Of a DNA stretch of 64,000 bases, positions 2,095 through 48,325 are shown piece after piece. Under the pieces are notes generated by a model. That model saw only the letters and a program-made list of their open reading frames with translations, did no database searches and had not been told where the DNA came from. A program made the translations under genes and the position numbers. Source of the DNA: Micrasema longulum (lineage: Eukaryota > Arthropoda > Insecta > Trichoptera > Brachycentridae). Positions within the stretch are counted from its first letter, which is position 1; each line of letters starts with the position of its first letter. The stretch is taken from NCBI GenBank assembly GCA_022494885.1, contig JAGVSM010004925.1, forward strand, positions 1 through 64,000, given 5' to 3'.

Positions 2095-2860
2095 ATCCAA
2101 ACATTATTATTATTAAGCTACTACTACTACCATCACGCCATTTCACCGTAGGGGTAGGCAGAGAGAATGGACCGCCACACACGTCTATCCTGGCATACAA
2201 TCCTAGCCTCTTCCACATTCATACATCTTGTCACATACATGCCCTTCGGTTCTGTCTGCTTTTGACATGACCAGACTTAAGATTTTGGTTTATCTGGTCA
2301 TGCCACGTCTTCCTTGGTCGTCCTCGTCTCACGTTGCCGTTCGTTTTAGCCATATATACTTGTTTTACCATTCTTTCGTCGTCCATTCGTTCTACGTGAC
2401 CAAACCATCTCAGGAGACCCTTTCTTAATCTTATCAATTATACTTGACTCGGATTTACACTCTCGCCCGATTTCATCATTCGTAACCCTGTCATACATTG
2501 ATTTCCCACACATTCGTCTAAGAGATCGCATTTCAACCACGTTCACTCGGCTTTCATCCTTCCTCTGCCAGTTCCATGTTTCACTTCCATACATAAGTGT
2601 TGGGACTAAAACTCCGTTGTGCACTGCCAGTTTAGCTTCGATTGACATATTTTTATTAGAAATTACTGTGCTTAGTGCTCCGTTCATTTTGTTGCCCGCA
2701 TTCACTCTTCTTTCAGCATCTTTTTCTACTCTTCCATCTCTTGAAAACATGCTTCCCAGATACACAAATTCTTCTACTTGCTCGAGACATTCGTTGTTTA
2801 CATTTATTATGCAGTCAGTAACCTCACTATCCCTTTTAATTATTGTTGGTTTTATAATTT
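2095..2860 (-). pseudogene. RTE-type LINE 3' end with ORF2 fragment
   Basis: On the minus strand: FVYLGSMFSRDGRVEKDAER, AKLAVHNGVLVPTLMYGSET, MRSLRRMCGKSMYDRVTNDE, then after a frameshift near 2430 LLRWFGHVERMDDERM and RRGRPRKTWHDQIN. This is the conserved RT thumb/C-terminal region of an insect RTE-type LINE. The element's 3' end (window left) is 'ggcgtgatgg(tag)n', a microsatellite tail. 5' truncated. Closest relative in the window: 59235-59610. Confidence 0.85.
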
Positions 2861-3215
2861 GTACATATTTTTTTTAATCTCTGAAAACAGCACACATATA
2901 TACACACGTATTATACTGTCTCTTACAAAATCCTGAATTATATCAACATCGTGTTATTGACTGAACGATTTAATGTCAATTGGCAAGAGATTCAGTAGGT
3001 ATAGGTAATCAATACGGAATAGCGAAGTTATTAATCAGTACTGATAAGTTTACACAGTTTCGATATTATTACTTTCCTGATCAGTACGATAAAATCGTAT
3101 TTATCAAATAAAAAGAAGTTACGGCAAGGAGGTTTTCTAGTAGGTTTTTAAACTTTATTTTTTAAAATTTAATATATAAATAAAAGACGAGTGATACATT
3201 AATCTACAAATTTGG
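2861..3215. other. Unique-looking AT-rich spacer
   Basis: No coding potential, RNA gene or repeat terminus recognised between the LINE and the hammerhead-like motif. Confidence 0.4.
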
Positions 3216-29110: not shown

Positions 29111-29314
29111 CACATTGTGCCTAAACTGAAACGCCCATATTTCTTATATTTATTTATTTTCTGTCTAACATAAAAGAGATAATATTATTAATTATACAGT
29201 AGTATGGATGACCAAACATATAATCAGTATTTTTTTCGTTTTTTTCGTAGTATTTAATTGATGAACTTGGTAATTCATCAAAATTATATGATTAATATTG
29301 TGTTTCCGTTAGTA

Positions 29315-29395
29315 AAAGGCTTCATTGTATGGGGTAAACAGAGAGTACTTTCATGTACCCACGCCGATTATTCCGACTATCGACGTGTCCATTCT
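29315..29395 (-). pseudogene. Tiny RTE LINE remnant
   Basis: 'cgccgattattccgactat' and 'gtgtccattctatc' resemble the reverse of the NNRRACMRR-encoding strip of the RTE LINE at 11366. Diverged. Confidence 0.35.
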
Positions 29396-29445
29396 ATCTA
29401 TCTCCTTCAAAATATATATATTATAAAAAATGTTTTTTATTTCAG

Positions 29446-30183
29446 AAACAGCACCGGAGCTCTTTCCACCAAGGAAGTTAATTCAGCAGATACTGGACAA
29501 GTTTCCGGTATAACCAGAAGCTCCATTTATAATGAAACTATCAGTTCCAAATCGAAAGCCATCACTGGAAATCCTTCTGGAAGTCGCTTTCGCCGTCCGC
29601 AAAGTGCCGACATAACCAAATTAACGAACTCTTCACTATCGATCTCACAAAAAAACCAAAGTGAACCCACCAAAAACTCCGCCCCAGACAAACCGCAAAG
29701 GGCAACACCTCAAGGTACAGAAGTTAAAAAGAAAGTCAGGCCTTCGTTGACTCCTTTGATAACTTCCAAAAAAGGCAAGCCTACAGGAGTATCGCCATCA
29801 TTATCAAGCGCTGAAACAAACTCAGAAGGCTCGAATCCGCCGCAAGCCAAAAATGACGGACGCCTAATTCCAAGCATCAAAGACAAACCATCCAGGTTTT
29901 CTCTCCTATCGTTTTCTAGAAAGACGTCTGTTGATGATAAGCGCGGTGCTCCTAAACCGAAATTCATCAGATTCACGAGCGTACCCGCGGGAAATAAATC
30001 TTCAGGGTTCTCGGCGTCCAAGTCAGTGCCGAATCTTCGGGTTTTAAAAACTATAAACAACAACGATATTCTGCAAGAAGAAGACGATGGCGGATTTAAT
30101 GAAGCTAGGAATAAAGTCAACTCCGAGGCGTTAAAGACCGTCTTGGAATCTTCGAGAACAACGTCATTGAGGAATATTCGAAG
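29446..30183 (+). CDS. Unrecognised gene, large exon 3 (738 nt)
   Basis: Acceptor 'tgttttttatttcag' ends at 29445 and donor AAGGTATGA gives GT at 30184. The exon is 738 nt, starts and ends in phase 2 and is open throughout, giving residues 39-283 of the predicted protein. The sequence is Ser/Thr/Lys/Pro-rich and basic with no membrane segment: e.g. SRFRRPQSADITKL, SKKGKPTGVSPSLSS, SRFSLLSFSRKTSVDDKRGA, ASKSVPNLRVLKTINNNDIL, then an acidic QEEDDGG. This looks like a disordered, phosphorylatable scaffold or cytoskeletal-type region, which is inference. Codon third positions are less AT-biased than the flanks. Being a multiple of 3, the exon could be skipped without frame loss. I do not recognise the family. 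Confidence 0.75.
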
Positions 30184-31061
30184 GTATGAAACTGTTTCCT
30201 TTTTTTTATTGTTTAATTATAACAAAATTATAAAGGTTTAATTCGCTCTGCTTATGGATATGCAATATCGGTAACTTTTTTCATTTGTGTGTCGTGATTC
30301 GTAACTCTGCTGAATTTTATTTTATGTATTTTTGTCAACAATCCTACTCGTAGTTCCGCGTTACTTGCAGTTTACATTATATTGTACGATATTACTACTT
30401 TGCCTCCTGAGATCCTTTACAAGGTATCAGGTTCTCTAGTCCTGGATGTCCAGTACTGACATTTCGTTTATGTCTGATCTCTAATCGAAGGACCTAAAGC
30501 AGAAGTATAGAGAAGCTCTCATATATTTTTCAATGACTTGCTCTATTTAAGGAGCGTGCATCGGCGAAGAGAAAATACTTATTTTGGTGTTTTGCTACAT
30601 TAACACTTTTCATATCGTTTGCCAAATTGAAATAATCAAATAAATTTTACATTATTTTTACATAAACATTGATGAAATTTGCAGCAAACTTTATTTCTGG
30701 CCTATCAGAAGCGTTTTTATGGGTATAGGATATTAGCATATTCACAAGCAGTTCGTATTTGACCCTATTGTTGAGATTCCCTTTTGTTTGGTAGGTACTT
30801 ATTATGTTTTAAAATGACAATCAATACTATTAATAAATATTATCATTATTGTACAATGCATTTCACGATGTTTCATAGCTCACGTTTTTCAAGATAATGC
30901 TTATTTATTACAGCACATTAAACATTATATTTGCACGAAACGTATTGACTCCATGCGTCTGTCTTACTAAAATGGTTTTGTAACTTTTGCGAAAGAAAGC
31001 GCAGTGAACTACTTCTTTTACCTATCTATTATTGTTTTTTTTTATGTATCTTTACGTTGTT
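30184..31061. other. Intron 3 start, no feature recognised
   Basis: Unique AT-rich sequence. No downstream exon in phase 2 with a good acceptor and donor was found here. Confidence 0.35.
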
Positions 31062-45312: not shown

Positions 45313-45595
45313 AAAAAAACCCGCGACGCCGCACAGTGTTTTGAGCCATACAAGCTACAAGATAAAAAGTCACTTTTGAATTCTTAAACGATGACGTCAT
45401 GGGGGCATTACCAGATAGTTAGTGTGACGATTGTAAGCCTAACTGGGGTGATTAATGCTTAGGGTGATTCATACCAGAATATGAAAGTCGGATAATTGGT
45501 TTTTGAAAGCCTAATTACATTTATTTGCATTTTGGCGTCCGACGTGTAAAGGTTGTTTATCAAGTTTAAAGTTTTTTATTTCGATTTAAAAAAAA

Positions 45596-47249
45596 ATGGA
45601 AGCTATTTTGGAAGGTATGTTGTATGGTTTTTTTTCTAATATTTTAATGTATTTCATTCAGGTATTTAAAAAAACAATAATTTAACTTATGTATTTTTCA
45701 GTAGTTAAAAAAATATCAATTTCTAACTTCTCGAGAATTTATCTCGGAGAGTATATCAAAGTAGCAAAATATTATTTTTATTTTTCAATAGACCAATTTA
45801 TTGTTAATTCATTACAGTTTCGATATTTTACCGCACGAAGTTGCATCTATCTTATTTTGTTATTTTACAGGTACCAGATACGAGATTTCCAGGCAAGAAT
45901 TGTACGTGATGTGGAAGAGTTTGACGAAGAAAGAAAGGCTTCAAGGAGTGATAAATAATATTGTTAGTAAATTTGAAGTCGGTGAACTCGGTACAAGTGG
46001 TGAAAAACTGTTAAAAAATCAAATTGAGCTTATTTGTTTAAATATAAGCAGAAAATGGACCGAATCTGGCTGTAAACTAGATAGATTTGTTAATAAAAAA
46101 TTTGAATGGCTCGGCGGTAGTGAAAATATTTTGATATGTGAAAACTTTCGACAAAGTCCTTCAGTAGACATGAATGAACCATCTACGTCTACTGGAAGGC
46201 CCGCAAAGGATTTCGGGGCATGCAGTGATCAGTGCAAAAGGACAAAAGTGCGTGATTTAGTGAGTACGAAGACATCTGAAGAACTTTCGTTTGCCACGCA
46301 GGTATCTATTCGAGCATCAGGAAAACGCACAGTTGCCGATCTCCTAAAGAAAATTTAGAAAGCTACTCCCAATGAAGTAGCAAAAATACGTAGGGAACGT
46401 AAACAAGTAAACAAACAGCGGGCATTGACAATTGAGGAAGCGCTAAGTTTATACGTTGACTGTAAATTATCTTCGCATTCCTACAAAGTTATGCGTAAAA
46501 ATGCCATAAAAACCGACCACAAAATATATCCGGCATTTTATAGTTTAAGAAAAACAAAAAAAGCATGTTGCCTGAGCGAGGAATTTGTCAAAATAACGGA
46601 AACTAGTGCAGAAATCCAGCTACAAGTGATTTTAAATCATACGGTGGAACGATTGCTAAATGTAGAATCAGAAGTCTAAAAAGAAAGAGTTCCTTCAGGT
46701 TCTGTACTGACTCTTATATGCAAGTGGGGTGGAGATGGAAGCTCGGGACATAGTAATTATAAACAGAAATTTTACACAGAGCATGCAATAGATGAATTTT
46801 TATTTATTATGTCATTCGTTCCAATACAACTAAGGCTTAATGATGACCCTAATATAGTAATTTGGCAAAATTTGAGCCCTTCCTCAACCTCTTATTGTCG
46901 TCCTATTAAATTTATTTTCGCCAAAGAAACTGATATTCTTACTAAGTCTGAAATCGAAAAACTTCAAGATGCAATTGAAAAACTTGAAAATTTTAATGTT
47001 AATATTGGAGGTGTAGTATTGTCCATAAAATTTAAAATGCTTTTAATAATGGTAGATGGTAAAATTTGCAACGTTTTGGCTGAAAATAAGTCAACCATGT
47101 CCTGTTATATTTGTGGCGCCAAACCCAGTGAAATGAACTCTATTAGTATTAATAGAGTTTCTCGACAAGAATTTTATTCTTTTGGCTTATCTACATTACA
47201 TGCTCTTTTTATATTTCTCAAAATACATCTCTTTGAAAATCACTTATAA
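45596..47249 (+). pseudogene. Transib transposase, spliced, two nonsense codons, C-terminus lost
   Basis: Exon 1 at 45596-45614 (MEAILE + 1 nt), intron 45615-45870 (GTATGT...TTTTACAG), exon 2 from 45871, continuing in frame as GTRYEISRQELYVMWKSL and SKFEVGELGTSGEKLLKNQI. The frame is kept to 47249, broken only by TAG at 46356 and TAA at 46677. Hallmarks: CKWGGDGSSGHSNYKQKF (46725-46775, first catalytic Asp region), IVIWQNLSPSSTSYCRPIKF, MLLIMVDGKICNVL (second catalytic Asp) and SCYICGAKPSEMN (zinc-binding CxxC). These are the Transib/RAG1-core motifs. The normal C-terminal third with the catalytic Glu is missing after GLSTLHALF; a trace may remain near 47765-47890 (TDLSVNRIKVIISIIYD). Role: cut-and-paste DDE transposase. 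Confidence 0.88.
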
Positions 47250-47274
47250 CAAATGTTTTATTTAAAAACCTTTA

Positions 47275-47630
47275 AGTTTTATCATCATCGTACCATATCC
47301 GCTCCCTATGTGGAGCATATGGATTCCATAATCTGCCTCCGGCCAAGCGATCGACCTCCCGTACATCCTCCCAAGTTAAGTCTACGTACCGCAACTCTGA
47401 CGCAAACTGCCCCCAAATTGTCAACAATGGACGACCAGGACGCCAAGAGCCTGATGCTTTGTAACACAGGCAAGCATGGTTAAGGCTCTCGGAAGGCATA
47501 AGTAGTACATGGCCTTGCCAGCCAAAACGCCTTGGATGACAGTAGATACCAAGGGTTGCTGTGTCCGTTGCCTCACTTCTGTGTTCCTTACAATGTCAAA
47601 CTTTTAAGTTTATTTAAACCCTTTCAGTTG
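47275..47630 (-). pseudogene. LINE 3' fragment inserted in the Transib element
   Basis: Minus strand reads ACLCYKASGSWRPGRPLLTI and VDLTWEDVREVDRLAGGRLW, a GRP-containing C-terminal region followed by a (GATGAT)n-type tail at 47280-47290. It recurs at 51428-51840 in the same orientation. Probably the distal end of an endonuclease-RT LINE; the RT proper is not present. Confidence 0.55.
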
Positions 47631-48030
47631 TCATGTTTAACATAATAAAATCAGCTGTAAAATGGTTATTCTGACAAAACAAGTGAAGGCAGATTAGTTC
47701 TCTCGGGTGAAATCTTTATTTTATGCCTAAGTATCTAATATAATTTTCAATGATTTATTTTATAGGTTGACCGATTTATCAGTCAATAGAATTAAAGTAA
47801 TAATTTCAATTATTTATGATCCTTAAATACATTATTGGATGCAGATATCAATTTCCAGAAAATTTATTTCGTTTATGAAATAACAAAATGTGACATATTT
47901 TTTATAAAACGAATTATTATTACATATTTAATAAAAAAAACCTCTTTTTAGGATTAAATGAATCGCATACATGAGTTAAAAGTACATTCAGAATTTTTAG
48001 TTTCTAGCTTGTATGAAACGAAACACTGTG

Positions 48031-48325
48031 CGCCGCCAGTCTCACAGTTCTTACCCGAAAAGATACGGCCAGGTAAAGTCTCACTAACTACGTCATGGAG
48101 CCTGGCAACATTAAATTTTTAAAGCTATACAAGCTTCTTTATCAAGGTATACTTAACTATATTGCTTTGAAACTGGTCGGTAGGAAAAAAAAGTTGTTAG
48201 AAACAAAGCTGTTTTTATTTATTTTACAGTATATTTAATTTTGCCAGGCTCCATGACGTAAATAGTGAGACTTTACCTGACCGTATCTCTTCGGGTATGA
48301 ACTGAGAGACTGGCGGCGACGCGGG
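48031..48325. repeat. Palindromic foldback interrupted by Transib
   Basis: 48031-48118 and 48237-48325 are about 88-bp inverted arms ('gatacggccaggtaaagtct' / 'agactttacctgaccgtatc') around a loop of about 118 bp. The left arm's outer end lies beyond the transposon at 45313-45331 ('aacccgcgacgccg'), matching 'cggcgacgcgggtt' of the right arm. The palindrome therefore predates the Transib insertion. Confidence 0.8.

What the first reader, a model, noticed from the sequence alone, without database searches (positions are those of the whole stretch)
45332..48030. Transib (RAG1-like) element with RSS-like ends and exact target duplication
Seen: CACAGTG termini in inverted orientation, CGCCG duplication on both sides, an A-rich nonamer-like block exactly 23 nt from each heptamer, and inside it a transposase with KWGGDGSSGHSNYKQKF, MVDGK and CYICGAKPSEMN motifs. 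Known: Transib is the transposon superfamily related to the V(D)J recombinase RAG1 and its ends. Inference: this is a defined family copy in a probable lepidopteran, with ends good enough to be mobilised in trans.
Basis: partly seen in the sequence, partly recalled or inferred. Interest (0 to 1): 0.82.

Follow-up and report, generated by a model that had tools for sequence, protein, structure and literature searches.

The report
Recently active Transib family, window copy shortened
This is a shortened, self-disabled copy of a "jumping gene" of the kind that gave rise to the antibody-making RAG1 enzyme; the same genome carries about 95 copies, including at least two with an unbroken enzyme gene, so the family has jumped recently, but it belongs to a known kind.

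Summary
Window 45332-48030 is a 2,699-bp Transib element: CACAGTG ends, an A-run 23 nt inside each heptamer, an exact CGCCG duplication, and a transposase piece whose full-length relative matches HzTransib (6pqn, E 4e-123) with all three DDE residues aligned. About 1.49 kb was lost at a 3-bp GCT microhomology, removing the catalytic Glu and the HxxxxH, and two in-frame stops precede the loss. The genome holds about 95 copies, 18 of them the 4.18-kb parent form. Of 12 parent-form coding regions read whole, 2 are open and differ by 1 base in 2,079. On a tree of 45 copies the two forms are split by one change, so the short form arose once and spread with enzyme made elsewhere. Of 47 right flanks 45 are CGNCG, already reported as Transib's preferred site. 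Coding differences look neutral, whereas the 3' end is nearly invariant (1 of 92 copies substituted); the 5' end is only suggestively conserved. Verdict: a genuine, recently mobile family of a known superfamily, not a new kind. Host not identified; movement today not shown.

The parts
45332..48030 (+). Transib element, 2,699-bp internal-deletion form
   Evidence: 39 other places at 97-100% identity in the same genome (40 candidates scored); ends as stated
45327..45331 (+). target-site duplication, left copy CGCCG
48031..48035 (+). target-site duplication, right copy CGCCG
45332..45370 (+). 5' end: heptamer CACAGTG (45332-45338), 23-nt spacer (45339-45361), A-rich nonamer-like block (45362-45370)
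   Evidence: family-wide counts (93 places)
47992..48030 (-). 3' end: heptamer (48024-48030), 23-nt spacer (48001-48023), nonamer-like block (47992-48000)
   Evidence: family-wide counts
45596..45614 (+). predicted exon 1 (MEAILE plus first base of the next codon)
   Evidence: inferred from ATG, GT/AG signs and frame; no transcript seen
45615..45870 (+). predicted intron (GT...AG)
   Evidence: inferred from sequence
45871..47249 (+). transposase exon 2 remnant; stops TAG 46356-46358 and TAA 46677-46679; carries Asp codon 46734-46736, Asp codon 47055-47057 and CxxC 47103-47114; lacks Glu and HxxxxH
47202..47204 (+). GCT microhomology at the internal deletion; about 1.49 kb of the parent form is missing here
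47280..47597 (-). insertion inside the element, present in the parent form too, flanked by 14-nt near-duplicates at 47266-47279 and 47598-47611; looks like a LINE 3' piece (recalled resemblance; no Pfam hit)
   Evidence: (D9)
48036..48318 (.). host foldback repeat into whose left arm the element inserted; its right arm (48233-48318) keeps the uninterrupted target
   Evidence: (I1)

Best explanation
The feature is one insertion of a Transib cut-and-paste DNA transposon family. Its parent form is about 4.18 kb and encodes one protein, a RAG1-core-like DDE transposase split by one predicted intron. The transposase should bind the RSS-like ends (heptamer, 23-nt spacer, A-rich block), cut at the heptamer and insert the element at CGNCG with a 5-bp staggered cut (mechanism inferred from HzTransib and RAG; not shown here). 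The window copy belongs to a shortened form made once by an internal deletion at a 3-bp microhomology. That form cannot make active enzyme and spread by using transposase from parent-form copies, of which at least two still have open frames.
For: Shown: ends, A-blocks, duplication. For the parent-form protein, HzTransib match E 4e-123 over residues 187-646; the other 9 hits are RAG1 or RAG1L chains at 1.9e-8 to 3.1e-4. HzTransib D126, D225, E436 (positions from passages of PMC6941560) fall on D289, D396, E604 of the parent-form protein, with one constant offset of 17 between chain index and published number, counted by hand on the printed alignment. A parent-form-only 40-mer: 17 exact places plus 1 with three mismatches; two interior 40-mers: 96 and 95 places. 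Two open copies, 1 substitution apart in 2,079 nt. Parent and deletion forms are separated by a single change on a tree of 45 copies; the branch between them has SH-aLRT 100. TSD exact in 37 of 41, right flank CGNCG in 45 of 47 (L006, with a damaged 3' end, left out). Joined left flank aligns without a gap to the opposite arm of the foldback, an empty-site equivalent. Four stop codons are each shared by two or three insertions, so broken copies moved too or exchanged sequence.
Against: No transcript, protein or excision event was seen; activity today is inferred. Most parent-form frames are broken: 10 of the 12 read whole and all 3 read in part; some breaks are only A-run length differences that could be sequencing error. 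Coding differences show no purifying selection: 71 nonsynonymous, 30 synonymous, 8 stop (65/28/7%) against a neutral expectation of 71/24/5% (transitions weighted 2). In 4 of 41 copies the two flanking 5-mers differ at the middle base, unexpected for simple insertion and pointing to exchange between copies or misassembly.
Confidence: 0.93

Rival explanations
1. The family is Transib but already silent: the burst is over, the open copies are accidental survivors and the enzyme is no longer made.
For: 10 of 12 whole parent-form frames are broken; coding polymorphism looks neutral; no expression data here.
Against: Two open copies differ by 1 base in 2,079; seven deletion-form copies are 99.6-99.9% identical to the window copy; 90 identical 3' ends.
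Confidence: 0.25
2. The copies multiplied by segmental duplication or were inflated by assembly rather than by transposition.
For: C1018 holds two copies of a related 3' end 628 bp apart with the same 15 nt after each; 4 of 41 TSD pairs disagree.
Against: Copies of the family have different flanks and their own 5-bp duplications: 37 of 41 exact.
Confidence: 0.03
3. The element is a RAG-like (RAGL/ProtoRAG) transposon carrying RAG1L and RAG2L rather than Transib.
For: RAG1 similarity and CAC ends are common to both.
Against: In the parent form L009 no second frame of 100 aa or more could be RAG2L: besides the transposase only 116 and 111 aa, both overlapping the internal insertion; the best structure match by far is HzTransib, with ProtoRAG-type RAG1L (6b40) at 5.6e-5.
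Confidence: 0.01
4. The deletion form is moved mainly by a different, related Transib family in the same genome with a near-identical 3' end.
For: Eight of the nine listed 3' matches with three mismatches lie on contigs without this family's interior; in the three loci read (four of the eight places) only the last 38-44 nt match the parent form.
Against: The deletion form shares its whole 2.7 kb with the parent form, which has open copies. The related loci were only compared by blastn with the parent form, in part; whether a transposase gene lies near them was not tested.
Confidence: 0.1

Closest known systems
HzTransib of Helicoverpa zea (PDB 6pqn and five more entries)
   Same: Homologous over the catalytic core, DDE residues aligned, 5-bp GC-rich TSD, one gene
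   Different: Here a longer element (4.18 kb against 3,518 bp) and longer predicted protein (about 698 against 489 aa); TSD of the H. zea insertion is GCTCG, here CGNCG (passages of PMC1852546). PMC8289069 (passage) says HzTransib ends have little or no nonamer similarity, while both ends here carry an A-run in 23-RSS register
Transib1 of Drosophila melanogaster
   Same: Recently mobile Transib with 5-bp TSD and internal-deletion copies alongside full ones (passages of PMC12974806)
   Different: There deletions of about 200, 1,500 and 1,800 bp in a documented new invasion; here one deletion form dominates and the time of arrival is unknown
KP element of the Drosophila P family
   Same: One internal-deletion form outnumbers full copies (11 of 16 P insertions in one strain; passages of PMC10299278); its use of enzyme from full copies is recalled
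   Different: Different superfamily and target; repression by the truncated protein is known for KP (recalled) but untested here
Vertebrate RAG1 and 23-RSS
   Same: Heptamer CACAGTG, 23-nt spacing and A-run position (RSS consensus recalled); core catalytic residues
   Different: Two 23-type ends instead of a 12/23 pair; no RAG2-like frame in L009; structure matches to RAG1 cover only the core

Membership tests
Transib superfamily | Transposase homologous to known Transib transposases with the DDE triad | tested here: met
   Parent form L009: 6pqn E 4e-123, D289/D396/E604. Window copy alone: only the two Asp remain
Transib superfamily | CAC-beginning terminal inverted repeats resembling RSS | tested here: met
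   CACAGTG at both ends, A-run 23 nt inside
Transib superfamily | 5-bp GC-rich target duplication; CGNCG preference reported for a moth Transib (PMC4735498) | tested here: met
   37 of 41 exact; 45 of 47 right flanks CGNCG
Transib superfamily | Single gene, no RAG2-like partner | tested here: met
   In L009 no other frame of 100 aa or more that does not overlap the inserted piece
Transib superfamily | Nick-hairpin cleavage and transposition by the protein | not testable with these tools
   needs a bench assay
RAGL / ProtoRAG transposons | Convergent RAG1L and RAG2L genes | tested here: not met
   no RAG2L-sized frame in L009
12/23 RSS pair (V(D)J-type asymmetry) | One 12-type and one 23-type end | tested here: not met
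   both ends 23-type
CACTA superfamily | CACTA-type ends (recalled) with 2-4 bp target duplication (table in PMC9033116) | tested here: not met
   CACAGTG ends, 5-bp duplications, RAG1-like transposase

The most novel reading that the evidence does not exclude
A Transib still moving in this species, kept going by very few intact enzyme genes while mostly dead copies multiply, with 23-RSS-like signals at both ends whose A-rich block is truly needed; it would be a living natural stand-in for a symmetric ancestor of the RAG/RSS system, and an exception to the statement that autonomous Transibs exist in one or a few copies per genome (passage of PMC4411706).
Probability: 0.3. Interest if true: 0.55.

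Novelty: new member of a known kind. Interest (0 to 1): 0.36.

Why it matters
Transib is the transposon superfamily from which the RAG1 core and its signals are thought to descend. A family with open transposase genes, about 185 sequenced ends (92 and 93), a variant heptamer that still moved and a very regular target gives natural data on which end and target bases matter. It also shows a deletion form outnumbering its source about four to one (18 parent-form places of about 95).

Tried and rejected
Search for an intact second copy of the host foldback to show a true empty site: none among the 40 scored of 1,428 first-look candidates; only the middle part recurs. The opposite arm served instead.

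Viral contigs with a relative (possible carriers between hosts): 1 stretch matched a pattern, none confirmed.

Purifying selection on the transposase among parent-form copies: not seen.

Purifying selection on the ends: my first pooled test (p 1e-5) compared private changes at the ends with all changes inside, which is unfair. Recounted by distinct changes: 3' end 1 in 92 copies against 17 in 191 inside, p 0.009; 5' end 5 in 93 against 17 in 191, p 0.35; copies with private changes 2 of 185 against 8 of 191, p 0.11. Counted as copies that differ from the commonest letters, the 5' end is not depleted at all: 23 of 93 (15 with the window's G at position 14, 3 with T at 4, 4 with G at 27, 1 other). 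In the alignment of 48 loci the 5' 40-mer has 3 changes against a mean of 9.4, lowest 2.4% of stretches. So the 3' end is conserved, the 5' end only suggestively. Interior control 40-mers were chosen for lack of shared variation, which works against finding depletion. The 17 interior changes and 5 at the 5' end were counted by hand from the lists.

Host identification: one exon-like frame at 29258-30241 gave a single unnamed relative. Not resolved.

Kapitonov and Jurka 2005 is not held; its content is cited only through other papers' passages.

Full report
What is there. The window segment 45332-48030 begins with CACAGTG and ends with CACTGTG, is flanked by CGCCG on both sides, and has ATAAAAAGT and CTAAAAATT (read inward) exactly 23 nt inside the two heptamers, with the AAAAA run at positions 33-37 from each end, as in the consensus 23-RSS nonamer ACAAAAACC (nonamer recalled). 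The two ends form a 45-nt, 80% complementary inverted repeat including the duplication.

A family. Pattern scans give fuller counts. The 39-nt 3' end: 103 places with up to 3 mismatches, of which 90 exact, 1 with one mismatch, none with two; of the nine listed with three mismatches one (C1764) is a family copy with a 2-nt loss at the end, and the contigs of the other eight do not appear in the interior lists below; three places were not listed. The 5' 40-mer: 93 places, 15 exact, 70 with one, 7 with two, 1 with three mismatches. Two interior 40-mers: 96 places (86/9/1 with 0/1/2 mismatches) and 95 places (82/9/3/1 with 0-3). So the family has about 95 copies; these scans miss copies with more than three mismatches or with gaps, and some copies run off contig ends.

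Two forms. Of 48 loci read (L001-L048; L001-L008 by overall similarity, the rest by an exact 3' end), 12 have an extra stretch of about 1.48 kb between element positions 1871 and 1873, 33 have the short structure (5 of them with a further 90-bp insertion, L017 with a 0.5-kb one, L028 and L047 about 68 bp shorter), 1 (L035) has another, larger deletion, and 2 (L019, L033) are too short to tell. A 40-mer found in the longer form occurs at 18 places, 17 exact and 1 with three mismatches. The nine complete longer copies are 4,178-4,188 bp. The junction in the short form joins ...ACATGCT and GCTCTTTTTA... of the long form at a shared GCT. On a tree built from shared columns the two forms are separated by one change, and the branch between them has SH-aLRT 100 (quick method; 45 of 48 rows, L019, L033 and L035 left out before building). 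The short form therefore most likely arose once and multiplied. That roughly 77 copies are short is a subtraction (about 95 minus 18).

The transposase. In L009 a frame of 718 codons is open; from the predicted splice site it gives 692 residues (P0001). It matches HzTransib (6pqn and five more entries) at E 4e-123 and nine RAG1 or RAG1L chains weakly, and Pfam RAG1 above its cut-off (38.5 against 25 bits). The window fragment alone scores 24.8 against that cut-off of 25. Published HzTransib catalytic residues D126, D225, E436 (passages of PMC6941560) align with D289, D396, E604; a CxxC at 412 and HxxxxH at 578 are present; their zinc role is taken from RAG1 knowledge (recalled). The window copy keeps both Asp and the CxxC, but the Glu and His pair lie in the deleted part, and TAG and TAA stops interrupt its frame. 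In a search of 5.8 billion proteins (7,988 candidates scored, 159 hits, best 120 listed) no listed relative exceeds 60% identity, the best-scoring being 52% over 97% of the query; named ones come from moths (Spodoptera litura 50% over 86%, S. exigua, Leguminivora), beetles, a hoverfly and Hydra. A scan of viral contigs confirmed no relative.

Open copies. Parent-form exon 2 was read whole in 12 of 18 copies: L009 and L057 are open and differ by one substitution in 2,079 nt; the other 10 are broken. Three more were read in part and are broken; three were not read. Some breaks are only length differences in A-runs, where sequencing error or slippage cannot be excluded. Among the 12 parent-form rows (9 whole, 3 partial) differences from L009 are 71 nonsynonymous, 30 synonymous and 8 stop (65, 28 and 7 percent), close to the neutral expectation of 71, 24 and 5 percent. 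Four stop changes are shared by two or three insertions, so broken parent-form copies were also mobile or exchanged sequence.

Targets. In 41 copies with both flanks, 37 have identical 5-mers; 39 of 41 left flanks and 45 of 47 right flanks are CGNCG, the two exceptions (L037, L041) being CAGCG and CGCTG. L006, whose 3' end is damaged, was left out. The neighbouring bases lean to R before and Y after (33 of 37 and 32 of 37). CGNCG occurs about 1.6-1.8 times per kb in local DNA (all). CGNCG was reported for Transib insertions from Trichoplusia ni into a baculovirus (passage of PMC4735498; table of PMC5704228), so this is a known preference. The four disagreements (L015, L016, L030, L040) differ only at the free middle base. 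New mutations should not single out that base; exchange between insertions or chimeric assembly would. This is inference.

The site in the window. The element sits in one arm of a foldback repeat (arms 48031-48116 and 48233-48318, 92% complementary). The left flank joined to the right flank at CGCCG aligns without a gap over 100 columns to the reverse complement of the other arm. That is an empty-site equivalent inside the same repeat. No other complete copy of this foldback was among the 40 scored of 1,428 candidates.

Ends under constraint. By distinct changes the 3' end has 1 among 92 copies against 17 among 191 in the two interior controls (p 0.009); the 5' end has 5 among 93 (p 0.35). In the 48-locus alignment, whose loci after L008 were chosen by their 3' end but not their 5' end, the first 42 columns have no private change and 3 shared ones; so little variation is found in 2.4% of 40-nt stretches. 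Conservation of about 40 nt fits an end made of heptamer, 23-nt spacer and nonamer-like block, but is suggestive rather than proof. Three copies carry CACTGTG as 5' heptamer; the two read, L023 and L032, have exact duplications, so that variant end was probably mobile.

How it works, by steps. Shown: structure, family, deletion, targets, presence of open transposase frames. Inferred from HzTransib and RAG: binding of the ends, nick-hairpin cleavage, strand transfer with a 5-bp stagger. Inferred from the tree and the lost residues: movement of the short form by enzyme from parent-form copies. Not shown: expression or movement today.

Age. Seven short copies are 99.6-99.9% identical to the window copy and the two open copies nearly identical. 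With a moth mutation rate near 3e-9 per site per generation (recalled) one difference in 2,079 nt corresponds to the order of 10^5 generations or less; this is rough.

Compared with what is known. It meets each Transib feature that could be tested. Kapitonov and Koonin wrote that autonomous Transibs are typically present in one or a few copies (passage of PMC4411706); here 18 parent-form copies exist, at least 2 with open frames, so by open copies it may be no exception. HzTransib ends are said to have little or no nonamer similarity (passage of PMC8289069), whereas symmetric Transib ends with nonamer-like blocks and 20-22 bp spacers, and a few with 12/23 asymmetry, are described elsewhere (legend in PMC8355894). 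Recent Transib1 insertions with internal-deletion copies are documented in Drosophila (passages of PMC12974806). No paper was read whole; each was seen as passages found by term.

Noticed in passing
L015, L016, L030, L040 (flanks): The two flanking 5-mers are both CGNCG but differ at the middle base only (4 of 41 copies); suggests exchange between insertions or chimeric assembly.
   Followed up: partly
L023, L032, L037, L040, L041, element position about 2104-2108: A nested palindromic insertion of about 90 bp (GCTGGTATTCCAAAC...) with a short duplication marks a subset of copies; L023 and L032 also have heptamer CACTGTG.
   Followed up: partly
L017, element position about 1070-1083: An insertion of about 0.53 kb with a 14-bp duplication and an A/T-rich tail, probably a retroelement piece.
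   Followed up: no
L049, L050, L051: Other sequences sharing only the last 38-44 nt of the 3' end (flanks CAGCC, TGGTG and CGGCG); likely sister Transib families or derivatives; C1018 (L049) holds two such ends 628 bp apart with the same following 15 nt.
   Followed up: partly
L022, L031, L029, L043, L011: Stops and small indels are shared in patterns that conflict with the tree, pointing to gene conversion between copies or assembly mixing.
   Followed up: no
L006 3' end: A copy with a 2-nt loss just at the 3' heptamer (AACTGTG) beside CGACG; may be a trace of failed excision.
   Followed up: no
window 48117-48227: The middle of the host foldback is a separate repeat: 65 further matching pieces elsewhere in the genome, 67-100% identical.
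   Followed up: no
window 2346-2873 (-): A 175-aa frame that reads like the end of a LINE reverse transcriptase protein (recalled resemblance; Pfam gave only a sub-threshold DUF3921 hit).
   Followed up: no
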